Below, in pieces: positions 17,135-34,599 of a stretch of DNA of 64,000 nucleotides. Every line of letters begins with the position of its first letter. The first letter of the stretch is position 1. This DNA comes from Thermobaculum terrenum ATCC BAA-798 (GTDB lineage Bacteria > Chloroflexota > Chloroflexia > Thermobaculales > Thermobaculaceae). Location: the NCBI RefSeq assembly GCF_000025005.1, contig NC_013526.1:806001-870000 (forward strand), written 5' to 3'. The notes under the pieces were generated by a model. That model saw only the letters and a list, made by a program, of their open reading frames with translations. It made no database searches and had not been told where the DNA came from. Position numbers and translations under genes: made by a program.

Positions 17135-19986
<2,852 letters not shown>

Positions 19987-19987
<1 letters not shown>

Positions 19988-22900
19988 TGGCCTACACCAC
20001 GATCACGATCGAGGGCGGACTCTTCCCATCCGACCTGCTGGACCGGCTCGTGCCGCAGGCCGGCGCGACGCTCGAGGGCCAGAAGCCGGCCGACTTCGGC
20101 TGCCAAGACCTGTCGGCGCTGCTGGCCGACATGCAGGCCGCGTTCAACGACATGCGTACCTACTGGGAGTCCTTCCAGCGCAGGCTCCAGCACGCCTCCG
20201 GCACGAGCCACACCAGCGTGACCCGCGAGAGCTGGGTGCTGCCCGTCCTGGAGCTGCTGGGGTTTGCAGAGGTCAGGTACGTGCAGGCCGCCACGGCCGT
20301 CGGGCAGGAGACGTACAACATCTCCCACTTCTACGGCGACGTCCCCATCCATATAGTGGGCTGCCACCAGCAGCTGGACCAGCGCCTCGTCGGCCGCGAG
20401 CGCCGTAGCCCCCACTCCACCGTGCAGGAGTACCTCAACCGCTCGGACGCCCTCTGGGGCATCGTGACCAACGGCCTCAGGCTCCGCCTGCTGCGCGACT
20501 CCGCGCTCGTATCGCACCCCGTGTACCTGGAGTTCGACCTGGAGGCGATGGTCCGTGGAGAGCTGTACAGCGAGTTCGTCCTGCTGTACAGGCTGCTCCA
20601 CAGCACGCGCTTCCCAAGGCCGGGCTCGCCTCCCAACGAGTGCCTGCTGGAGCGCTACTACCAGCAGGGCATAGAGGAGGGCGGCAGGGTCCGCGAGCGC
20701 CTGCGAGAGGGGGTGGAGCGCGCCCTGGGCATCCTGGGGCGTGCGCTCCTGGCACACCCCGAGAGCGTTGCCCTGCGAGAGGCCATGGTCTCCGGAGAGC
20801 TCTCCCCCGTGGGCTACTACCGCGAGCTGCTCAGGCTGATCTACCGGCTGCTCTTCCTCTTCGTGGTGGAGGAGAGGAGGCTCCTGCTGCCGCCGGCCGA
20901 GGACGAGCGCACCCGGCGCCTCCACGAGGTGTACCTCCAGCACTACAGCGCCTCCCGCCTGCGCGCCCGCAGCGAGGCGCACCACGCCGGCGATACCTAC
21001 TGCGACCTCTGGCACGGCCTCATGCGGACCTTCGAGCTCCTGCGCGACGACGAGCGGGCGCGCAAGCTGGGCATGTCCGCCCTCAACGGCGAGCTCTTCG
21101 GTCCCAACGCCTGTGCCCACATCGAGCGGGCGGTCTGCACCAACCAGGACCTGCTGGATGCCATCGCCAGCCTCACCCTCTTCCAGGACGAGGGCACCTA
21201 CCGCAGGGTCAACTTCGCTTGGCTGGACGTCGAGGAGCTGGGCTCCGTCTACGAGAGCCTGCTGGACTACCACCCCAGGGTGGAGATCACGCCCGCCGGC
21301 ACGGACGCGCAGGGCGCCGTGACGCCCCCGGAGCGCAAAGCAGGCGAGTCCTCCCCCGCGAGGATCGAGGCCAGCGCAGGCGTCATCTGTAGCTTCGAGC
21401 TGGTGATGGGCTCCGAGCGCAAGCAGACCGGCTCTTACTACACACCGCCCTCTCTAGTGCGCCAGCTCATCAAGACAGCCCTCGAGCCGGTCATAGAGCA
21501 GCGACTGAAGGAAGCTGGGCATGACAGGCAGAGGCAGGAAGAGGCGCTGCTCAACTTACGCGTGTGCGACCCTGCCTCGGGCTCGGGACACTTCCTGCTA
21601 GCGGCCGCCAGGCGCATCGCCCGGGAGCTCGCGCGCGTCCGTACCGGCGAGGAAGAGCCCTCGCCACAGGCCTACCGCCAGGCCCTGCGCGACGTGATCC
21701 GCGAGTGCATCTACGCCGTCGATAAGAACCCCCTGGCGGTGGACCTCTGCAAGGTCGCGCTGTGGATCGAGGGCTACAACACCGGCATGCCCCTCAGCTT
21801 CCTGGACAACCACATCAAGTGCGGCGACTCCCTCGTGGGCATCTTCGACATTCAGGCGCTGGTCGAGGGCGTGCCCGACGGAGCCTACGAGGCCGTGGAG
21901 GGCGACAGCAAGGCCATCGCCTCCGCCATCAGGAAGCGCAACAAGGAGGAGAGGCTCCAGTCTACCCTGTGGGGGGCGAGCAGCGTGCCGGACATCACCG
22001 ATATCGCCAGGGATTTTGCGCAGCTGTCGACCCTTGCCGAGAGTACGCCTGAGGAAGTGCGCCGCAAGGAGCAGTGCTACAGCAACCTCCGCAAGCCCAG
22101 CACCAGGTGGTGGGACCTGAAAGTGGCGTGCGACCTGTGGACCTACGCCTTCTTCGCGCCCCTGCGCAGCGGCGAGCCCGTGTCCACCACCACAAACGTC
22201 TGGGCGGCGCTGGAGAGGTCCGGCAAGGATCCGCAGGTGGAGGGGCAGGCCATCGCGTACTCGCAGGAGCACCCTTTCTTCCACTGGCCGCTCGAGTTCC
22301 CAGAGGTGTTCGACCGCGGCGGCTTCGACGTCGTCCTCGGTAACCCCCCGTGGGAGCGCCTCAAGCTCCAGCAGCAGGAGTTCTTCGCCTCCCGCGACCT
22401 TCAAATAGCCAAGGCGCGCAACAAGGCCGAGCGCAATAAGCTCATCAAGCAGCTGCCGCAGACCAACCCCGAGCTGGCCAGGGAGTACGATCGGGCATTG
22501 CATGCCTCCGAGGCACAGAGCAAATTCGTGCGCCTAAGCGGGCGCTTCCCCCTCTGTGGGCGCGGCGACGTCAACACCTACAGCGTCTTCGCCGAAAACT
22601 TCCTGCAACTAATGTCGCCAAAGGGTAGAGCCGGACTGATCGTGCCCACGGGCATCGCCACCGACGACACCAACAAGCACTTCTTCGCGGAGCTCGTGCG
22701 CACCGGCCGCCTCGCCAGCCTGTACGACTTCGAGAACAAGGGCATATTCCCTGCCGTAGATGATCGCTACAAGTTCTGCCTGCTCACGCTCGGGGGTGAC
22801 GGGCAGCGGTCGAGCGCCGCGGAGTTCGCCTTCTTCCTGCACAGCGTCGAGGAGCTGGAGGGCGGGTCGCCCGAGGTCCTGGCCGCAAGGGGCACACCCT

Positions 22901-25125
22901 CGCAAGGGGCCAGCGGCGCACCGGCGGCCCCGGCGGCCGACAAGCGCTTCATCCTCACGCCCGAGGAGATCTCGCTGATCAACCCCAACACCCGCACCTG
23001 CCCTATCTTCCGCTCCCGTCGCGACGCCGAGCTCACACTCGATATCTACAGGCGCGTGCCCGTGCTCGTCAGAGAAGGCCCCCCGGAGGAGAATCCATGG
23101 GGAGTTAGCTTCCTGCGCATGTTCGACATGTCCAACGACTCCCACCTCTTCCGCACGCGGGGGGAGCTGGAGGCCGCGGGGTACACCCTCGTGGGCAACG
23201 TGTTCGTGAGAAGGGCCTCGCACCCGACCCCTCGCCCTGAGGGTGATGGCAGCGATGGCCCGGCACCCGCCTCCCCATCAGGACACGGGGATCCCGCTCG
23301 CCCGACAGCCGCCACGCAACCCATGGGGGAGGAAGGTAAAAACCAAACGTCCCCCGAGCCCAGAAGCGGACATGAGCCCCACAACCATAGCTCGCACGGC
23401 TACATCTCCGCCCGCAACGGGGGATTTGAGGGTCAAATCGCACCTCCGTCCCTCGGGAGAAGAGGCGATCGGTCCTCCCACAGCTCTTCTCATCCGATGT
23501 GGCTGGGGAGAGAGGGTGTGCCCACGCCTCGCGCCCGCGAATTCCGCCGAGCTTCTACCCGCAGCAAGGAGCTCCTTTGGCATGTGCTGCGCGGCCTGCA
23601 GGTAGACGGCTACAGGTTCCGTCGCCAGCACCCCTTTGGACCGTTTATCCTGGAGTTCTACTGCCCCGAGGCCAGGCTAGCTATCGAGGTCGATGGGCCA
23701 ATACCTGGGGAGCGACGTGAGGTGGCACTGGAGCGCCAACGCTGGCTGGAGCGCCACGGGCTGCAGGTGATTCGGGTCTCCCCCGAAGAGGTCGAGCACT
23801 CCCTGCCCACGGTGGTCAGGAAGATAAGGGCAAAGCTGTCTCAACGCCTCTCACAGGCCGCACCTCTGCCTGGCCGAAGTGAGGACGGTCACACCCCCAG
23901 CCGACCAATAGCGGCCAACACAGCCGCGAGGAGTGCAGGCCCGGACACCGAGGATATCGGGAACGCATCGACCAACAACAGGCCAACCCAGCATGTCGGA
24001 AGCAACAGCGGCACCGAACCAGGCAGTACGGCCACGATGAGCGCCGCCGGTAACGAGCCCGCCCTATCCGCCCAGGCAAGCACCACCGGGACCACACAGG
24101 CTGACAACAGCCCACACGCCCCCCTCACCTCGGAGGAGGGCGGGCAAGAAGAGGAGGCAACACCCGCCCGCCCTGCCGAGAACTGGGAGAGCGACGATGT
24201 CTACCTGCCGCTCTACGAGGGCAAGATGTTACAACAGTTCAACCACCGCTGGGCCACCTACCAGCCCATGCCCGCTAGTGCTCACTCTAAGCGTATGGCC
24301 AAGACTAAAAAGGATGGCGCCGAACGAAACTCTACACCTGATGAGCTGGCTGACCCCAACTTCGTCGTCATACCTCAATACTGGGTCGCCGCCTCCGAGG
24401 TATCCAAGCGGCTCTCCGGCCGCTGGCCTTACCGCTGGCTGGTAGCATTTCGAGATATCACTAACTCTACTAACGAGCGCACCGCCATCTTCAGCTTCAT
24501 CCCCCGGGTCGCAGTGGGGAACACAGCTCCCTTAGTTATGACTTCAAAAACTGAAAACACCACCAAACTAACCTCTTACCTTGCTAACACGAACAGCTTC
24601 CTGTTTGATTACGTTGCTCGACAGAAAGTTGGCGGTACACATTTGACTTTTACTTTGCTAAATCAATTCCCCGTGCTGCCGCCCTCTACCTATGAGAGGC
24701 AGGCGCCGTGGGACGGGGGGGTCACGCTGGCCGAGTGGATCACCCCCAGGGTGATGGAGCTGGTGTACACGGCGTGGGACCTGCGACCGTTCGCCCAGGA
24801 CATGGGGTACGACTGCCCACCCTTCCGGTGGGACAAGGAGCGGCGCTTCATCCTGCGGTGCGAGCTCGACGCCGCCTACTTCCACCTCTACGGCATCCGG
24901 CGCGAGGACGTCGACTACATTATGGAGACCTTCCCGATCGTCAGGCGCAGGGACATGGAGCAGCACGGCGAGTACCGCACGAAGCGCGTCATCCTGGAGA
25001 TCTATGACGAGATGGAGCGCTGCATGCAGACGGACGCACCCTACACCACCCGCCTCCATCCGCCACCCGCCGACCCCTCCCTCACCCACCCCTGGGATCG
25101 GCGCGCAGTCCGGGAAGGCGCTTGA
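19987..25125 (+). CDS. drmMI: DISARM N6-adenine methyltransferase DrmMI with an inserted DUF559 nuclease-like domain
   Basis: A 1712-residue protein, much longer than a usual DrmMI. The N-terminal helical region (1-480) leads to GSYYTPPSLVRQLIKTAL, the SAM motif CDPASGSGHFL near 526 and the catalytic VVLGNPPWERLKL near 785. These define the gamma-type N6-adenine class. The target-recognition part resumes with DVYLPLYEGKMLQQFNHRWATY near 1405 and continues to the end. Between about 1077 and 1400 lies an extra block of Pro/Ser/Gly-rich linkers around a complete DUF559-like domain. The protein should methylate host sites so that DISARM spares self DNA. It is in frame throughout. Confidence 0.88.
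23215..24189 (+). other. In-frame insertion carrying a DUF559 (Vsr-like, PD-(D/E)XK) endonuclease domain inside drmMI
   Basis: The inserted domain spans about 23536-23856. It shows TRSKELLWHVLRGLQVDGYRFRRQHPFGPF split as in DUF559, then ILEFYCPEARLAIEVDGPIPG and RQRWLERHGLQVIRVSPEEV. The usual first catalytic Asp (DFYC) is Glu here and the usual EVDGxxH reads EVDGPIPG, so activity is uncertain. The flanks are low-complexity: one Pro/Gly/His-rich, with the phrase TPRPEGDGSDG, and one Thr/Asn/Ala-rich. Flanking DNA such as CCTCGCCCTGAGGGTGATGG resembles the dispersed repeats that often accompany DUF559 genes, hinting at acquisition as a mobile block. That origin is inference. Confidence 0.7.
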
Positions 25126-26450: not shown

Positions 26451-26510
26451 ACCTATTATGGTATATAGAGGTCCCGACTACATCTGGGAGCAAAATGCAA
26501 GGGCAGGTAT

Positions 26511-26538
26511 TTGCATGCTTTATAAATCGTGCTACAAT
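26511..26538 (+). promoter_or_regulatory. Promoter of the second DISARM transcription unit
   Basis: TTGCAT (26511-26516) and TACAAT (26533-26538) are separated by 16 bases. Transcription would begin near 26545, giving a leader of about 20 bases before the ATG at 26566. Confidence 0.6.
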
Positions 26539-26565
26539 CCAGCTCAATGGTCACGGGGTGCAGCC

Positions 26566-27582
26566 ATGAGGATTGCAGGAGGGGGAAGGAAAGCAGCTCA
26601 GAGTGAAATCGTTATCAAGGGTGCTGATCCCGGTTCCTGGCAGCTGTTGGAAGACGGTGTATGTGTGCACATGCCGGAATGGGCACAGTTCTTCCTGGAG
26701 CTGGGGCAAGAGATCGCTTGTTACGAAGTCCGGGACCGCGTACCGGTAGTCGCGGTCTCTCTGCCTGCCAGAAGCTACGCGGCGATGTTTGCGGCCGTTG
26801 GGGTGGTGCGTTCGCGCGCCAGGATCAACACCATCGCCGACAACGAAGAGTACTTCGAGCAGCTGTGGGCCCTGGCCGGCAAAGGCGACCGGATACCTGT
26901 GGAGTACAGGGAGGCCGGGAAGCGCATCCAGGGCTACCTGACCGGGCGTAGCCAGGACGGAGAGGTGCGCCGGCTGCACATCGACCTCGGCAAGGAAGGC
27001 GTGCGCAAGATCACCCCCCAGATAGCCTCCAGGATCGTCCTCAAGGAGAAGATAGGCAAGCAGGGTCGGGGCAAAGCTAACCGTAACCCAGCTCTGAGCG
27101 CAGTACTCGATCTGCCGGACCTGACAGACTTCCTTGGGCGCGCTCGCCTGGACTGCATCATCGTTGCTCAGAAGAACGAGATCCGGCCAGAATCCGGACT
27201 CCGCATACGCCCCTACCAGTCAGCGAATATTGAGGTAGAGGTCAACGACATCCTGAGGGTAAAGGAGTGGTTAGTAGACTGGGGTGCCTATCGCACGCAC
27301 ATAGTCTCTGAGAGGTTGAGGGATAACGGCAGGGTTCCTCAGGAGAGCTTGCGACACGCTCCAGTCGTGATCTTTGACGGTGCCAAGGGGTTCATCCAGC
27401 GCAGGGGAGAGTTTACCGGGCTACCATGGCTGATCCTCCTGGATCGCACAGAACGAGGGTACAGAGACGCCGCCCAAGAGGTAGATGCCCTGGACAGCAC
27501 CCGCGTGGGCGACGCGGAGAAGCTAAGGATACCACACATACCTCAGGGCGTGGAGCTAGTCGCTTTCGAGGTGCGAAGATGA
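26566..27582 (+). CDS. Unknown DISARM-associated protein (candidate N-terminal half of a split DrmE-like protein)
   Basis: A 338-residue protein starting at ATG 26566 after GGGGTG. A longer frame runs upstream, but the promoter at 26511-26538 lies inside that extension, so it is not translated. No domain was recognised. Visible features are a mixed alpha/beta layout, SLPARSYAAMFAAVGVVRSR near 65-84, a basic GKQGRGKANRN segment near 165-175 and a hydrophobic LPWLILLDRTERGYRDAAQE near 288-307. The stop overlaps the next start (ATGA), so both products are made together. Position directly ahead of drmA matches that of drmE in class 2 DISARM. That identity is a positional inference needing a profile search. 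Confidence 0.6.
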   Translation: MRIAGGGRKAAQSEIVIKGADPGSWQLLEDGVCVHMPEWAQFFLELGQEIACYEVRDRVPVVAVSLPARSYAAMFAAVGVVRSRARINTIADNEEYFEQLWALAGKGDRIPVEYREAGKRIQGYLTGRSQDGEVRRLHIDLGKEGVRKITPQIASRIVLKEKIGKQGRGKANRNPALSAVLDLPDLTDFLGRARLDCIIVAQKNEIRPESGLRIRPYQSANIEVEVNDILRVKEWLVDWGAYRTHIVSERLRDNGRVPQESLRHAPVVIFDGAKGFIQRRGEFTGLPWLILLDRTERGYRDAAQEVDALDSTRVGDAEKLRIPHIPQGVELVAFEVRR

Positions 27583-29099
27583 TAGCAAGGCTTACAGATG
27601 TTAACCGCGTCTACGAGCTGGCGGGACAAGCCAGGATACATCGCTACCGGATCGCCTACCAGCCGCTACGGGACTACGCACGCAGCTTGAGGCGGTTGAT
27701 GCGCGCTGTGGGTGACCAGTATGACAGCTTGGCATGGAGGGAATTCGTGCGCCGGGCAAGAGGCTACTACCACAGGTGCCTCGCCTTACCCCTGCCGTTC
27801 CACCACGAGGCCCTGGGTGGGCGTGCGACGCTTGCAGCCTTGCAAGAGGCATTCGAGTCCCCCGAGATCCGCTACTCTACTCCCGCTGATATGGCGCTGG
27901 AGGTGATACAACATCTGGAAGATCTGGTAGCCCGCAGGGATAACCCCCTGCTGGAGAAGATCCTGGAGATAGCCGAGCGGGAACAGGGGGATATCGCCCT
28001 GGTTACAAGCGAGACAAAGATGCAGGACTCTATCGCTGAGGAGCTGCGCAGATATCAACAAACATCCGAGATAAGGGTCGTATCCCCGGAGAGGCTTCGA
28101 GATCCCACAGCCTTCGATGTCCTGTGCGTGCTGGGCACGGCATCCTGGTATGAGCTGAGGGAGCAGGATTATATATTCACGGCTCCGAGAGCCAGGGAGA
28201 TCCATCTACTGCGCTACACCTTCCAAAGAGATAGTTGGGAGGAAGACCGATCGTTCACGCGGCTCAGCAGAGGCAGCAGGGAGAAGCCTCAACTGCTGCC
28301 GGATGAGCCCCAGGAGGAGTACGTGGAGATCGAGCCTGAGCTCCCCAGCAGAAGCGTCGTGGAAATAGCACGAAGGTCGGGCACCGACGAGCGATACGAA
28401 CAAGAGGTGCCCGCGTTCGCAGTATACCTTGAAGGGGAGCGGGCAACTCTTCTGGAGGACGACGACAACGCCAGGGTGTTCATCATCGATCCCAGGGAAG
28501 AAGGGGATGAACGCGTCCAAAGGATTCCATCCACGAGCGTAGAGCCAGGAACTTTTCTCTTGCTACGCATCGACTCTAAAGAGAGGGATTATATCTTGCC
28601 CGTCGCCAATGAGCTGCTCGGCTCGGACGCCGAGGTGCTGCGGCAGGCACAGCGCAGGTGGAAGGAGAAGCTGCGCGAACGGATCAAAGTGTACGGGCAC
28701 ACTTGGGTCGCCGAAAGAATTAAGGAGTCGGGATGCGAGATATCCACCCCCACGAACGTCCGCAACTGGGCTTCCGAACGTTTCATACGTCACAACGACA
28801 AGCAGCACTTTGTAAGCGTGATGCGATACCTGGGGTTCGGGCCTGAGGCCGATGAGCTGTGGGAGATGATGACCAGGATCAGGCACGCTCACCAGGAGGC
28901 CGGGCACAAGCTGCGCAAGATGCTGCTTCAGCATGTGGCATCGATGGACCTGTCCGCCCTGCTGGACAAGGGCTACATGGAGTTCAATCTGCCGGAGTAC
29001 CAGGACTTCCGGATGGGCGCCTTCCGGGTGATAGAGGTAGACCGGAGATCCGAGGAGGTGCCTGAAGCACAGATCGGCAGGTTGATAGATCTCGAGTAA
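27579..29099 (+). CDS. Unknown DISARM-associated protein (candidate C-terminal half of a split DrmE-like protein)
   Basis: A 506-residue protein whose ATG at 27579 overlaps the previous stop. Around residues 145-215 it shows strand-helix units such as GDIALVTSETKM, AFDVLCVLGTASWYEL and FTAPRAREIHLLRYTF. These resemble the second lobe of a helicase-like or nucleotide-binding fold without recognisable helicase motifs. An acidic beta-rich middle follows. The C-terminal 140 residues look helical and DNA-binding: HTWVAERIKESGCEI, TNVRNWASERFI and VSVMRYLGFGPEADELWEMM. It ends 17 bases before drmA. No family was confirmed; the DrmE relation is inference from position and layout. Confidence 0.6.
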   Translation: MIARLTDVNRVYELAGQARIHRYRIAYQPLRDYARSLRRLMRAVGDQYDSLAWREFVRRARGYYHRCLALPLPFHHEALGGRATLAALQEAFESPEIRYSTPADMALEVIQHLEDLVARRDNPLLEKILEIAEREQGDIALVTSETKMQDSIAEELRRYQQTSEIRVVSPERLRDPTAFDVLCVLGTASWYELREQDYIFTAPRAREIHLLRYTFQRDSWEEDRSFTRLSRGSREKPQLLPDEPQEEYVEIEPELPSRSVVEIARRSGTDERYEQEVPAFAVYLEGERATLLEDDDNARVFIIDPREEGDERVQRIPSTSVEPGTFLLLRIDSKERDYILPVANELLGSDAEVLRQAQRRWKEKLRERIKVYGHTWVAERIKESGCEISTPTNVRNWASERFIRHNDKQHFVSVMRYLGFGPEADELWEMMTRIRHAHQEAGHKLRKMLLQHVASMDLSALLDKGYMEFNLPEYQDFRMGAFRVIEVDRRSEEVPEAQIGRLIDLE

Positions 29100-29116: not shown

Positions 29117-32100
29117 ATGGAGCCATATCAACTGTATGATCCCACACGCAACCGGCAGATGACCGGCAGGGAAGCCAGGGACAAGCTGTACGACTTCCTG
29201 CGCAGAGGGCTAATGGGACCTGCCCCCTATGGTGCTCCTCTGGACATCAACCAGCCGATCTCCTTTCAGTCCTGGGAGGAAGCCGCTGGGCCCTGGGTAC
29301 AGCAGGGCACCGGCGAGGAGATCCTGTGGCGCGACCCGCCACTGGTACGCTACAGCGTGGGAGTGCTCTTCCCAAGGGACATGCCCAGGGATGAAGTAGA
29401 GCAGGAGCTGGAGGAAGCTGCGGAGGAGTGGGCTACTTCGGAGGCAACTCCTCCACAGAGCCGGAACCATGACAGCAGTAGCAGGGGAGATATGGACCAG
29501 GTGTCGAGCGACCCCCTCGAAGAGGATGAAGAAGGCGATATATCTCTCTCGAGATACAGACAACCCTCGAGCATGGGCATCAGCTTACTGGCGAGGCTCC
29601 GCCGCGGCTCCCGCCTGGTGGTCACTGTTACCGGGGGGCAGTACTCCTTCCTGGAAGCCCAAGTGATGGGCCAACAACGTGCCATGTACCTCAGGCGACC
29701 GGTCACGCTGTTGGCCGAGGCCGGACCTGAGGACATAGCTCAAAGGGGTATCCACAAATTGGTACCAGCCGCAAGCGAGACCCATGGCCTCGAGCTCGAG
29801 GTGCTCGTTACCTCGCGCCCTATGCGGGACGACCAGTACCTGCTGACCGTGTCGCTAGTCAATAACACTCCTTACGATCACCCCGGCAGCGATGAATACA
29901 GGCGCTACAAGTCCGAGAGGTGCCTCTTCCAGTCAAGCTTAGAGGTCGAGGTGCGGGGAGATGGTGATTCGGGCATACTGCCCTACCCCTCCAGAGAGCT
30001 GCAATCGATGGTCGACGATGAGGAGGAGTCCATTAGGCTACTGTACCGCAAGCACCAAATCTTCGGTGTGGGGCACGGCTGCGCTGCCGACTGGGAGCTG
30101 GACCCCTCAGGCGAGCGAGCGCGCAAGGTCATGGCCGAGTGCATGCCCAAGGTGGAGGTGCCGAGCGTCACCCCCGACATCCGGCTGGAAGACGGCTCGC
30201 TGCTGGAGATACCTATGGCGCCGCTGGCGGGACTGGTACCAGGCGACGACGGGCTGCGCTCGCTGGAGAGGATGCTCGACCTCTACGCCAGATGGATCGC
30301 AGATCGCAAGCGGGAGATCGAGACGCTGGAGGACACATACCAGGAGGCAGCCTACAGGCACATGGAGGAATGCGAGCGCTGCCTGGCTCGCATGCGAGAA
30401 GGTCTACGCTACCTGCAGGAGAACACCATGGCCAGAAGGGCCTTCCAGCTCGCCAACCGCGCCATGCTCCTCCAGCAGATAACGTCCCGCAGGCCGACTC
30501 GCGCGGCCACCATCACCGAGGATAACCGCCTGCAATTCAGGGGTGAGTACGTCCCCCCGGATCCCGCATCGCCAGGAAGGGGTATAGGGAGGTGGCGCCC
30601 CTTCCAGGCAGCTTTTATCCTGATGAATCTGCGCTCCATCGCCGAGGGGAACCACCCCGATCGCGAGACGGTGGAGCTGATATGGTTCCCCACTGGCGGA
30701 GGCAAGACCGAAGCTTACCTCGGGCTGACGGCGTTCTCGCTCTTCCTACGCCGGCTCAGGGACCCAGAGGATTGTGGGGTGCACGTGATCATGCGCTATA
30801 CCCTGAGGCTGCTCACCACTCAGCAGTTCCAGCGTGCTTCGAGCCTCATCCTCGCCATGGAGAAGATCCGCAGGGAGAACCCCGCAGAGCTGGGGCAAGA
30901 ACCCTTCTCCATAGGTATCTGGCTTGGCCAAAGCACAACCCCCAACACCCGTAAGGACGCCGTTAGTAGCTTAGGTCAACTGCAAAGATCTGACAAAAGC
31001 ACCGAGAATCCCTTCCTCCTGCAGAAATGCCCCTGGTGCGGCGCACAAATGGGGCCCATAGATCGAGGTAACTCCAGCAGGAGGAGAGGGAATAACACCA
31101 GGCGAGTGCTGGGTTACGAGAGGATAGGCAATACCGTAGCCTTCTGCTGTCCAGATAAGAGCTGCGAGTTCTCGGACAGGCTGCCAATCTACGTCATCGA
31201 TGAGGACATCTACGAGTTTCGCCCATCGCTCGTGATAGGCACAGTAGATAAGTTCGCCATGCTGGCTTGGCGCCCAGAAGCCAGGACCCTATTTGGGTTG
31301 GACGATCAAGGCCAGAGGATTCTATCTCCACCAGGGCTTATCATCCAGGACGAGCTCCACCTCATATCCGGTCCCCTCGGGTCCATGGTGGGACTCTTCG
31401 AGGCCGTGATAGAAGACCTCTGCACCGACAGGCGCGGCGCCCAACCCATCAAGCCCAAGATCATAAGCTCCACAGCGACGGTACGCCGCCACAAGGAGCA
31501 GATCAAAGCGCTGTACAACCGCGATCGGGTGACCCTGTTTCCGTCACCCGGGCTGGAGGTGAACGAGTCATTCTTCAGCAGCATAGATAGAATGGATGAT
31601 GGCAGCCTGGCCCCCGGCAGGATGTACGTGGGAGTGTTCTCCCCAGGCACCAGGTCCCTGGTCACCACCAGCGTGCGAACCTTTGGCTCGCTGCTGCAGG
31701 CAAGTTACGAACTGCCTGAAGACAAGCGAGATCCCTGGTGGACCCTGATGATCTTCTACAACAGCCTAAGGGAGCTGGGAACCGGTCTGTCCCTGTTCGA
31801 CTACAGGATCGGAGAGTACATGAGGGCGATGAACAGGCGCCGCGGCCGGGAAAACAGCACACGGTTCATCTACCGCAACAGAGTCATCGAGCTCACCAGC
31901 CGCATCCGTAACGACCAGGTCCCTCAAGCGCTCGAGGAGCTGGCCAGAAGATACAGTCCTGCGGACGAGAGGAGCGATGGGGTCCGTGCCCTGGATGCCT
32001 GCCTGGCCTCCAACATAATCGAGGTGGGGATCGACGTAGAGCGGCTGTCGCTCATGGCAGTGGTCTGCCAACCCAAGGCCACGGCCCAGTACATTCAGGT

Positions 32101-32638
32101 GACCGGACGTGTGGGGCGCCGCTGGCGAGACCAACCAGGCCTGGTCGTGATCTTATATAATCAGGCACGTCCGAGGGATCGCTCGCACTTCGAGCACTTC
32201 CGTGCCTACCACGAGCGCCTGTACGCCCAGATAGAGCCGATGACGCTCACGCCGTTCTCCCAGCCGGCGATGGAGCGGTCGCTTCACGCCGCACTCGTGG
32301 CCTATGTGCGGCAGTACAGCAGGATCGACCAGCCTCCTTCGCCTGTGCCTGAGGACCTCATAGCCAGCTTCCGGTCACTTGTGCGGGAGCGGGTTAGGTC
32401 GGTGGACCCAGATGAGCTGCCTGCCCTGGAGAAGATCCTGGAGATGCGCCTCAGGCAGTGGCGGGCCTGGGAACCCGAGCACTGGGAGGTAAAGAAGGAC
32501 GATCTGGGACTCATGTACCGTGCCGGAGAGTACATCGATCCCGAGATAGCCAGCATCTCCTGGGAGGTACAGCAGTCGATGCGCAGCGTTGATGCTGAGT
32601 GTAGATTAAAGATCACATACAGCTACATCAAAGACTAA
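29117..32638 (+). CDS. drmA: DISARM helicase DrmA
   Basis: A 1173-residue protein starting at ATG 29117 after GGAGGGAGCG. The central ATPase motif is WFPTGGGKTEAYLGL (near 522-536), with RYTLRLLTTQQFQR after it and LIIQDELHLISGP (near 741) as the DExH box. STATVRRHKEQI is motif III. A zinc ribbon of CPWCGAQM and CCPDKSCEF (637-685) interrupts the lobes. The second lobe ends with NIIEVGIDVERLSLM and TGRVGRRWRDQPGLV (near 970-1000). This set and order are specific for DrmA, the SF2 helicase common to all DISARM classes, which acts with DrmB on incoming DNA. An acidic insert lies at 105-150. Confidence 0.9.
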   Translation: MEPYQLYDPTRNRQMTGREARDKLYDFLRRGLMGPAPYGAPLDINQPISFQSWEEAAGPWVQQGTGEEILWRDPPLVRYSVGVLFPRDMPRDEVEQELEEAAEEWATSEATPPQSRNHDSSSRGDMDQVSSDPLEEDEEGDISLSRYRQPSSMGISLLARLRRGSRLVVTVTGGQYSFLEAQVMGQQRAMYLRRPVTLLAEAGPEDIAQRGIHKLVPAASETHGLELEVLVTSRPMRDDQYLLTVSLVNNTPYDHPGSDEYRRYKSERCLFQSSLEVEVRGDGDSGILPYPSRELQSMVDDEEESIRLLYRKHQIFGVGHGCAADWELDPSGERARKVMAECMPKVEVPSVTPDIRLEDGSLLEIPMAPLAGLVPGDDGLRSLERMLDLYARWIADRKREIETLEDTYQEAAYRHMEECERCLARMREGLRYLQENTMARRAFQLANRAMLLQQITSRRPTRAATITEDNRLQFRGEYVPPDPASPGRGIGRWRPFQAAFILMNLRSIAEGNHPDRETVELIWFPTGGGKTEAYLGLTAFSLFLRRLRDPEDCGVHVIMRYTLRLLTTQQFQRASSLILAMEKIRRENPAELGQEPFSIGIWLGQSTTPNTRKDAVSSLGQLQRSDKSTENPFLLQKCPWCGAQMGPIDRGNSSRRRGNNTRRVLGYERIGNTVAFCCPDKSCEFSDRLPIYVIDEDIYEFRPSLVIGTVDKFAMLAWRPEARTLFGLDDQGQRILSPPGLIIQDELHLISGPLGSMVGLFEAVIEDLCTDRRGAQPIKPKIISSTATVRRHKEQIKALYNRDRVTLFPSPGLEVNESFFSSIDRMDDGSLAPGRMYVGVFSPGTRSLVTTSVRTFGSLLQASYELPEDKRDPWWTLMIFYNSLRELGTGLSLFDYRIGEYMRAMNRRRGRENSTRFIYRNRVIELTSRIRNDQVPQALEELARRYSPADERSDGVRALDACLASNIIEVGIDVERLSLMAVVCQPKATAQYIQVTGRVGRRWRDQPGLVVILYNQARPRDRSHFEHFRAYHERLYAQIEPMTLTPFSQPAMERSLHAALVAYVRQYSRIDQPPSPVPEDLIASFRSLVRERVRSVDPDELPALEKILEMRLRQWRAWEPEHWEVKKDDLGLMYRAGEYIDPEIASISWEVQQSMRSVDAECRLKITYSYIKD

Positions 32639-32673: not shown

Positions 32674-34599
32674 GTGAACGAGGCACCCATACGAAGAAGA
32701 CAACTCATCACGACTTCTGGCGTGGGCGGTATGATCACAGCCCCGGACGGTACATCCCTGCTGATCGCCGGCCTGGACCACTGGTACGAGAGCCGAGACG
32801 GCGAGCTCAAAGAGGATGAGTTCGTGGTCCGGGAGTGGAGGCTGGAGCGCTTGTTAGGGGTCAGCCACTTCCGTCTGCCCCCCGATTTTCGCAAGGGAGG
32901 GGGTGACAACCTATACATCAGCATACCGGCGCTGCGCTTCCCAAGGTGGCATAGATGCATCCTATGCAATAAGCTGGTCAAGCGCAAACTAACCGACTCC
33001 TCACGGGACAGGGATCACAAATGTCCAAAGAACAATTACGGTCCATGCCGGCTTTACCAGGTGCCAATGGTCGCCGTGTGCCCCAAAGGACATATGGAGG
33101 ACTTCCCTTTCGTGGAGTGGGTGCACAGGACTTTGCATCCCACCTGCCAAGGGCCGCTTAAGATGTACGCCACTGGCACGGGGTTCTCTCTAGGTTCCAT
33201 AGAGATCAGTTGCGAGGGGTGCGGCAAGAAACGCACCCTCTATGGGCTGGTGGGATCAGACGTCACCCGTCGTAGTATAAGCATCTTGGGCAGTAAGCAG
33301 GATATACAGGACACAAGCGACATGGACGTGGAACCTGGTAAAGGCTACACGTGCCGGGGTCACAAGCCATGGCTGGGGGATGGAGTCCCTACCAGTGGGT
33401 GTGGCGAAGACATGTCCCTTTCCATGCGCACCTCCACCAACGTCTACTTTCCTAACACCATCGCCTCGCTCTTCATCCCCAAGGACACGGATACAGACCA
33501 TCTACGCCGGCTGCTGGAATCCCCCTCTTATATAAGGACCATAGAGACCCTGCTGCGTGCGAATCTGAGACCCAGCGCGCAGCTGCTGAGAAGGCATCAC
33601 CGACCTGATCCCCTCGAACCATACACGGACGAGGATATAGACGCAGTCCTTGAGCAGATCATTCAGGAGATGAACACTGGGCAGCCGGACACCAAGCCCG
33701 AGCCCAGTGGAGAGGCAAGCCTGCTGCAGTCTGAGTACCAGGTCCTCAGCAGCGCCAAGAGCAGGAAAAACCCATCAGCAAAGGCTCAGGAGCTCATCAC
33801 CGAAAAGATGGATCTGGACGCCTACGATGCGAAGGTAGCCGAGTACCTCGAGAGCGTGGTGTTGGTCAAGAAGCTCAGGGTCACCCGAGTGTTCGTAGGC
33901 TTCAGCCGCTACGAGTCCTTGGAGATCGAATTCGACCCCAGCATGCTCTGGCGCAACCCCCCTGATCCAGAGAATAGGTGGCTGCCGGCCGACGTCAGCT
34001 ACGGTGAGGGCATATTCCTCGCGCTCAACAGCGGCAGGTTGCAACAGTGGGAGTCGGCAGAGACTGTCGGTCAGAGGGTAGAGCGGATCAAGGCTAACCT
34101 CCGCAGATTCCGAGGCATGTCCTTCCTCAAACGACACGCCCATCCCAGGCACGTGCTCCTGCACACCCTGGCCCATCTGCTCATGCGCCGCCTGGCATTC
34201 GAATCCGGCTACAGCCTCACATCCCTGCACGAGAGGATATACAGCGAGGGTGACATGGCTGGCATACTCATATATACCTCTGAGGGGGATGTCAAGGGAA
34301 CGTTGGGAGGATTGGTGCGCATGGGACTTCCCCAGAAGCTCGAGGGAATATTCCTGCGCGCGCTGGAGGAGGCCACATGGTGCTCCTCAGATCCTGTATG
34401 CATGGAGTCGGTAGGTGGCGACGTCTTGGGGCTGCCTAGCTTCAACCTGGCGGCCTGCCACGCATGCGCCCTCCTGCCGGAGACCTCTTGCCAGGAGATG
34501 AACCACCTGCTGGATCGCGCCCTTGTGGTGGGCACGCCCGAGGATCAAGATATAGGCTTCTTCAAGGATTTGGTAAAAACCGCTATCGGCATAACCTAG
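32674..34599 (+). CDS. drmB: DISARM DUF1998 protein DrmB
   Basis: A 641-residue protein starting at GTG 32674 after TTGGAGGTC. The N-terminus RRRQLITTSGVGGMITAPDG and the following Cys groups (CILCNKLV, CPKNNYGPC, CEGCGKK and a Cys near 249) are typical. The C-terminal DUF1998 region has HVLLHTLAHLLMRRLAFESG, GILIYTSEGDVKGTLGGLVR and CHACALLPETSCQEMNHLLD, with probable zinc ligands near 608-617. DrmB is the second core DISARM subunit and forms a complex with DrmA. The gene lies 35 bases after drmA and ends at a bidirectional terminator, so it closes the operon. No drmC follows. Confidence 0.9.
   Translation: MNEAPIRRRQLITTSGVGGMITAPDGTSLLIAGLDHWYESRDGELKEDEFVVREWRLERLLGVSHFRLPPDFRKGGGDNLYISIPALRFPRWHRCILCNKLVKRKLTDSSRDRDHKCPKNNYGPCRLYQVPMVAVCPKGHMEDFPFVEWVHRTLHPTCQGPLKMYATGTGFSLGSIEISCEGCGKKRTLYGLVGSDVTRRSISILGSKQDIQDTSDMDVEPGKGYTCRGHKPWLGDGVPTSGCGEDMSLSMRTSTNVYFPNTIASLFIPKDTDTDHLRRLLESPSYIRTIETLLRANLRPSAQLLRRHHRPDPLEPYTDEDIDAVLEQIIQEMNTGQPDTKPEPSGEASLLQSEYQVLSSAKSRKNPSAKAQELITEKMDLDAYDAKVAEYLESVVLVKKLRVTRVFVGFSRYESLEIEFDPSMLWRNPPDPENRWLPADVSYGEGIFLALNSGRLQQWESAETVGQRVERIKANLRRFRGMSFLKRHAHPRHVLLHTLAHLLMRRLAFESGYSLTSLHERIYSEGDMAGILIYTSEGDVKGTLGGLVRMGLPQKLEGIFLRALEEATWCSSDPVCMESVGGDVLGLPSFNLAACHACALLPETSCQEMNHLLDRALVVGTPEDQDIGFFKDLVKTAIGIT

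What the first reader, a model, noticed from the sequence alone, without database searches (positions are those of the whole stretch)
23215..24189. DUF559 nuclease-like domain inserted in frame inside the DISARM methyltransferase
The DrmMI reading frame continues uninterrupted through about 320 extra residues: two low-complexity linkers around a full DUF559-like domain. It lands between the NPPW catalytic domain and the target-recognition region. It could join nuclease and methylase in one polypeptide, explaining the missing drmC, or be a selfish insertion tolerated at a surface loop. The first catalytic Asp is replaced by Glu and the DGxxH is altered.
Basis: partly seen in the sequence, partly recalled or inferred. 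Interest (0 to 1): 0.8.

Follow-up and report, generated by a model that had tools for sequence, protein, structure and literature searches.

The report
Dead homing-nuclease insert in DISARM methylase
A ~330-residue block carrying a homing-endonuclease-type (DUF559) domain sits in frame inside a phage-defence DNA methylase; it looks like the catalytically dead remains of a palindrome-flanked selfish element of a kind found in frame, sometimes with other cargo, inside many unrelated bacterial genes.

Summary
Window 19987-25125 encodes a 1712-aa DrmMI-like methylase whose frame runs through a ~328-aa block (residues ~1076-1403, bases ~23212-24195) holding a complete DUF559 domain between two disordered linkers. 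Where the loop could be measured in its 106 homologues, nearly all lack the block (24-46 residues). The block splits a beta-hairpin loop. The idea that it restores a nuclease replacing drmC is not supported: the residues matching E, D, H and D of the EDxHD homing-nuclease motif, present in 42/42 other DUF559 domains compared, are K, E, P and A here. The idea of a tolerated selfish insertion is supported. On the host tree DUF559 entered this methylase family at least three times, once more into the same loop; a fourth case, at another site, shows dense tandem palindromes. DUF559 genes are generally flanked by C-rich palindromes (3.5-4.7/kb against 0.5-0.6). The window insert keeps four decayed ones. 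DUF559 also sits in frame in other methylases, in MetH and in inteins. A second cargo, the 23S-IVP four-helix-bundle gene, sits out of frame in five family members and one other methylase. I read this as a dead, decaying copy of a palindrome-bounded mobile coding element.

The parts
17135..19987 (+). SNF2-type helicase (best PADLOC model DpdE, next DrmD) directly upstream of the methylase
19987..25125 (+). DrmMI-like Eco57I-type N6 adenine methyltransferase, 1712 aa, hosting the insert; motif I (DPASGSGHFL) and NPPW intact
23212..24195 (+). whole insert (residues ~1076-1403), absent from nearly all homologues
23212..23526 (+). linker 1: low complexity, predicted disordered, base composition equal at all three codon positions (0.66/0.67/0.67)
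23229..23249 (.). decayed C-rich palindrome CCCTCGCCCT-G-AGGGTGATGG near the left border
23527..23847 (+). DUF559 (EDxHD/Vsr-fold) domain; catalytic positions E1196K, D1225E, H1242P, D1249A
23800..23822 (.). weak C-rich imperfect palindrome at the 3' end of the domain
23848..24195 (+). linker 2: low complexity, predicted disordered, little codon periodicity (0.64/0.66/0.72)
23861..23881 (.). decayed palindrome CACCTCTGCC-T-GGCCGAAGTG just after the domain
24118..24141 (.). decayed palindrome GCCCCCCTCA-CCTC-GGAGGAGGGC near the right border
27426..29099 (+). DrmE-like protein (PF24957 DrmE_C)
29117..32638 (+). DrmA helicase
32674..34599 (+). DrmB (MZB/DUF1998-type)

Best explanation
The block is the relic of a palindrome-bounded mobile coding element with a DUF559 (EDxHD-type) nuclease as cargo. 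It inserted in frame into a beta-hairpin loop of the DrmMI-like methylase. C-rich palindrome arrays can be read through without stops and encode disordered Pro/Gly/Ser linkers, so the host frame continued and the protein was made with an extra tethered domain. Afterwards the nuclease lost all four catalytic residues and the palindromes decayed; selection on the methylase alone would suffice to keep the frame open. Shown here: in-frame insertion, hairpin-loop location, separate insertions into the same and other sites, palindromic flanks of related elements, catalytic loss in this copy. Inferred: that the element moved itself (by nuclease-triggered copying or palindrome-mediated recombination), that the methylase still works, and that the insert is neutral.
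For: 106 homologues: block absent from nearly all. On a host tree built on shared core columns, DUF559 presence needs three separate changes (window, L060, L106) and the four-helix-bundle cargo five; L153 is a further DUF559 case. L060 carries DUF559 in exactly the same loop, flanked by perfect palindromes such as CCCCCTCTCCCGC/GCGGGAGAGGGGG. L153 has palindrome arrays at three places in one methylase gene; the one in the window's own loop holds no DUF559. Palindrome density beside DUF559: 4.65/kb (embedded) and 3.52/kb (free-standing) against 0.53-0.58/kb elsewhere in the same loci; the insert has 4 in 984 bp, a density reached by 0.4% of window positions. Both linkers lack codon-position structure, the domain keeps it. 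AF2: strands before and after the block are confident, linkers pLDDT ~25-45, domain ~75-94. Catalytic loss: 0 of 4 here against all four in 42 of 42 others. Fold match to I-Bth0305I. In-frame DUF559 also in MetH, DUF1156, MmeI, type ISP and N6/N4 methylases. Second cargo read in the other frame.
Against: In the window the palindromes are weak: the exact-arm test gave no significant excess, the imperfect-palindrome rule was set after seeing the left border, and the best alignment of a real repeat unit at the border is not exceptional in C-rich DNA. No target-site duplication was found, there is no second DUF559 in the genome and no second copy of the insert DNA. The AU test does not formally reject grouping the window and L060 DUF559 domains (p 0.083). 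No movement was observed.
Confidence: 0.74

Rival explanations
1. Domesticated module: the dead nuclease domain was kept as an extra DNA-binding or recognition part of the methylase, as happens with dead homing-endonuclease domains.
For: Fold-defining residues (W1200, FRRQ 1213-1216, E1236, D1238, G1239, R1252) and codon periodicity survive although the catalytic residues are gone. The block lies next to the target-recognition part.
Against: Long flexible linkers, no homologue keeps such a module, and frame and fold could be retained simply because a stop or an aggregating domain would destroy the methylase.
Confidence: 0.15
2. Functional nuclease-methylase fusion that replaces DrmC.
For: DUF559 domains recur inside methylases of several families, and this genome lacks PLDc_2 proteins.
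Against: All four EDxHD positions lost; DrmC is dispensable and often missing; the same element sits in methionine synthase, where no DNA target makes sense.
Confidence: 0.03
3. Plain domain shuffling or recombination that brought in a DUF559 gene once, without any mobile element; the palindromes are coincidental.
For: Weak palindromes and no duplication at the borders of this copy.
Against: Repeated entry into the family, including the same loop, and strongly palindromic flanks of sister cases.
Confidence: 0.07
4. Intein or intron remnant.
For: DUF559 does serve in intein-like elements (L034, L036, L039).
Against: No Hint/intein model matches in the window protein; no conserved-motif insertion site.
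Confidence: 0.01

Closest known systems
EDxHD homing endonucleases (I-Bth0305I) / DUF559 (COG2852) / Vsr fold
   Same: Same fold by Foldseek (3hrl E 8e-7; 3r3p, I-Bth0305I catalytic domain, E 6.6e-5) and by profile; DUF559 is assigned to the EDxHD family in PMC9403480.
   Different: Catalytic motif lost; not in an intron, intein or free-standing gene; no extra DNA-binding region recognised.
Rickettsia palindromic elements (RPE) and other in-frame bacterial MITEs
   Same: Palindromic DNA inserted in frame in protein genes, with the host product still made; an RPE-containing guanylate kinase is active (review PMC2229807; PMC10969869).
   Different: RPEs are about 100-150 bp and are not described in these reviews as carrying a nuclease domain; here about 1 kb with a folded nuclease cargo.
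[quoted passage not shown]
   Same: Palindromic coding repeats spread horizontally (PMC2996958).
   Different: Unrelated 25-residue amphipathic repeat arrays, no nuclease domain.
23S rRNA intervening-sequence protein (PF05635) elements
   Same: Second cargo found at other sites of the same methylase family, also among palindromes.
   Different: Four-helix bundle, out of frame with the host.
DISARM DrmMI
   Same: Methylase core, and DrmE, DrmA and DrmB genes alongside.
   Different: 328-aa insert; no DrmC.

Membership tests
DUF559 / EDxHD homing endonuclease | DUF559 profile and PD-(D/E)XK/Vsr-like fold | tested here: met
   PF04480 E 3.5e-22; Foldseek 3hrl and 3r3p; profile search 3hrl 1.3e-37
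DUF559 / EDxHD homing endonuclease | E, D, H, D catalytic residues | tested here: not met
   K1196, E1225, P1242, A1249; all four intact in 42 of 42 others
DUF559 / EDxHD homing endonuclease | site-specific cleavage and homing | not testable with these tools
   needs biochemistry
In-frame palindromic mobile element (RPE-like) | in-frame insertion with homologues lacking it | tested here: met
In-frame palindromic mobile element (RPE-like) | palindromic DNA at the borders | tested here: inconclusive
   4 imperfect palindromes, 0.4% of window positions reach this, but not significant with exact arms; strong in L060 and L153
In-frame palindromic mobile element (RPE-like) | several copies in the same genome | tested here: not met
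   single DUF559 and single copy of the insert DNA
DISARM DrmMI | DrmMI profile, methylase motifs, DrmA/DrmB neighbours | tested here: met
DISARM DrmMI | DrmC (PLD nuclease) in the system | tested here: not met
   none among the six cluster ORFs; PF13091 absent from the whole genome; DrmC known to be dispensable
Intein | Hint splicing blocks around the nuclease | tested here: not met
   no intein model in the window protein, unlike L036 and L039

The most novel reading that the evidence does not exclude
There is a widespread, undescribed class of mobile coding elements: C-rich palindrome arrays carrying either a DUF559 (EDxHD) nuclease or a 23S-IVP four-helix-bundle gene, which enter protein-coding genes (above all DNA methylases, also metH) at loop or linker sites and leave the host frame open without splicing, in the host's frame (DUF559) or in another frame (four-helix bundle). 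The window holds a dead, decayed member.
Probability: 0.5. Interest if true: 0.8.

Novelty: new variant of a known kind. Interest (0 to 1): 0.6.

Why it matters
It shows how a nuclease domain can enter a defence methylase without being a designed fusion: as selfish DNA that keeps the reading frame. It warns annotators that a DUF559-methylase fusion need not be a restriction-modification enzyme. It makes a little-explored question testable: whether palindrome-bounded DUF559 and 23S-IVP elements move, and how proteins such as DrmMI and MetH tolerate 100-330 extra residues. The out-of-frame four-helix-bundle genes inside methylase genes are natural overlapping-gene experiments.

Tried and rejected
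Exact-arm palindrome excess in the window flanks: not significant. Matching a real repeat unit from L153 to the window by local alignment: a gapped match at the left border, but not exceptional across the C-rich window. Target-site duplication: none. Further DUF559 or insert copies in the genome: none. Intein: no Hint model. AU test of joint origin with L060: p 0.083, undecided. Sampling cyanobacterial genomes through the genome search was not possible ('of' accepts only G handles); the plasmid collection gave 39 DUF559 records, mostly annotated as ordinary small endonuclease-domain proteins or not annotated at all. One protein search failed on the server. No paper found links DUF559 to palindromic in-frame elements, nor 23S-IVP genes to insertion in protein genes; the library holds only open-licence papers, so this is weak evidence of novelty. 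Taylor et al. 2011 (I-Bth0305I) was not available.

Full report
What is there. Window 19987-25125 is one 1712-aa ORF that matches DrmMI (PADLOC E 1.3e-80), Eco57I and N6_Mtase, with a complete DUF559 domain at residues 1182-1284. Neighbours are a DpdE/DrmD-like helicase upstream and DrmE_C, DrmA and DrmB downstream, so the DISARM label is reasonable. DrmC is missing: none of the six cluster ORFs matches it, and no PLDc_2 gene was found in the genome. The window's genome has 3,101,581 bases in two contigs, the size of the Thermobaculum terrenum genome as I remember it; this identity was not tested.

The insert. I collected 106 homologous methylases from bacterial genomes. Between the conserved strings FDMSNDSHLF and YLPLYEGKM most measurable homologues have 24-46 residues and the window has 350. 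The insert is thus residues ~1076-1403. Its closest host relatives (L124, L044, L056) have no block there, and L129 has a short Pro-rich stretch. AlphaFold2 on residues 790-1640 with 58 homologues gives confident strands just before (1072-1075) and just after (1405-1410) the insert, disordered linkers (pLDDT ~25-45) and a folded DUF559 domain (~75-94): the block splits a beta-hairpin loop.

The domain is dead. The window domain folds like NGO0050 (3hrl) and the homing endonuclease I-Bth0305I (3r3p). A published account places DUF559 in the EDxHD homing-endonuclease family (PMC9403480; review PMC3943268). Across 42 other DUF559 domains the E, D, H and D are invariant; in the window they are K1196, E1225, P1242 and A1249, while W1200, FRRQ, E1236, D1238, G1239 and R1252 are kept. 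A metal-dependent nuclease is therefore very unlikely. Equating these four positions with the EDxHD motif is my reading of the alignment; the original paper was not available.

It happened repeatedly. L060 (a MAG) carries a DUF559 block in exactly the same loop, L106 (Spirulina) at window residue ~508, and L153 (same class as the window's genome) just before the NPPW motif. On a 107-tip host tree the DUF559 state of window, L060 and L106 needs three changes, and the hosts lie far apart. In the DUF559 tree the window domain groups with L106 and with L045, a free-standing DUF559 downstream of a DrmMI homologue (99/96), and L060 with L040; joint origin of window and L060 is not formally rejected (AU p 0.083).

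Palindromes. In L153 the gene carries tandem C-rich palindromes at three sites; the array in the window's own loop (GNVF-VPAMHPHPRPLPHQGGGESVHPHSRPLPHQGGGELTPPSPLVGEGG...-LYIPLYEAKM) has no DUF559. In 250-bp flanks most of the DUF559 loci show an excess of exact palindromes over dinucleotide shuffles, and the domains themselves do not. With one fixed imperfect-palindrome rule the flanks have 4.65/kb (embedded) and 3.52/kb (free-standing) against 0.53-0.58/kb in the rest of the same loci; the window insert has four in 984 bp, near the left border, at and just after the domain, and near the right border, a density reached by 0.4% of window positions. That rule was chosen after seeing the left border, so the window figure is suggestive only. 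The linkers have the same G+C at all three codon positions, or nearly so, unlike the domain and the methylase, as expected of DNA that was not selected as protein.

The wider pattern. Among DUF559 matches in 400 genomes of the window's phylum, I looked at those in long open frames. Hosts are DUF1156 methylases (L023, L024, L027, L035, L040), an MmeI-type and a type ISP methylase (L025, L029), N6/N4 methylases (L034, L036, L038, L039), and methionine synthase MetH (Pfam-checked in L026, L030, L031, L032 and L037; L028 and L033 placed there by sequence and by the tree). In L036 and L039 the DUF559 lies inside an intein-like segment, where homing endonucleases usually sit. This selection sees only in-frame cases. 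A second cargo was found by chance: in DrmMI homologues L146, L054, L127 (site ~1610) and L067, L070 (site ~517), and in methylase L027, the inserted stretch encodes in the +1 frame a 23S-IVP four-helix bundle (PF05635, E down to 2e-42 for the five tested), while the host frame stays open through it. An insert that encodes a normal protein in a frame the host does not use cannot be a designed domain fusion, and it is the best argument that these blocks are selfish DNA.

Mechanism proposed. Palindrome arrays with a cargo ORF enter loop-coding DNA. Arrays can be free of stops and encode disordered linkers, so in-frame copies are tolerated and kept. How they move is unknown: nuclease-triggered copying is the natural guess for DUF559, but IVP cargo and empty arrays suggest that the palindromes themselves, or a trans-acting function, matter more. 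In the window the nuclease has died and the palindromes have decayed.

Against what is known. In-frame palindromic insertions are known from Rickettsia (RPE) and other MITEs, and an RPE-containing enzyme is active (PMC2229807, PMC10969869); PARCELs are another palindromic coding repeat (PMC2996958). I found no description of DUF559 or IVP genes as cargo of such in-frame elements, with the limits of an open-licence library. The DrmC explanation is unnecessary, since DrmC is dispensable and often missing (PMC9142583).

Verdict. Observation confirmed; of the two readings, selfish insertion supported, nuclease replacement not. A new variant of a known kind, with a general phenomenon behind it that deserves a systematic survey.

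Noticed in passing
L146:3679-4305, L054:8371-8988, L127:3850-4443, L067:6247-6852, L070:4380-4775, L027:3152-3697: A 23S-IVP four-helix-bundle gene (PF05635) lies in the +1 frame inside methylase genes whose own frame stays open; in several of them the flanks encode palindrome-like peptides (GSGEWG..., SPLPTPHSPLP).
   Followed up: partly
L153:3200-5130: One DrmMI homologue carries palindrome arrays at three sites, one with DUF559 (with a run of N inside) and one in the same loop as the window insert.
   Followed up: yes
L034:1158-4913, L036:2987-7057, L039:3264-7031: N6/N4 methylases with DUF559 in one clade; in L036 and L039 it lies inside an intein-like segment (Pfam Intein_splicing, weak).
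   Followed up: partly
L026, L028, L030-L033, L037: Chloroflexota methionine synthase (MetH) genes with a DUF559 block between the pterin-binding and B12-binding parts, EDxHD residues intact, one clade in the DUF559 tree.
   Followed up: partly
17135-19987; L048, L054, L058, L060, L062: The window helicase scores best as DpdE rather than DrmD, as does the upstream helicase of L060; in L048, L054, L058 and L062 the related methylase is followed by a DruE-like helicase, not by DrmA/DrmB, so the methylase family is shared by several defence systems.
   Followed up: partly
L045:7766-8218, L148:4240-4497: Separate DUF559 ORFs downstream of DrmMI homologues.
   Followed up: no
26458-27582: ORF between the methylase and the DrmE-like gene with no Pfam or PADLOC match.
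   Followed up: no
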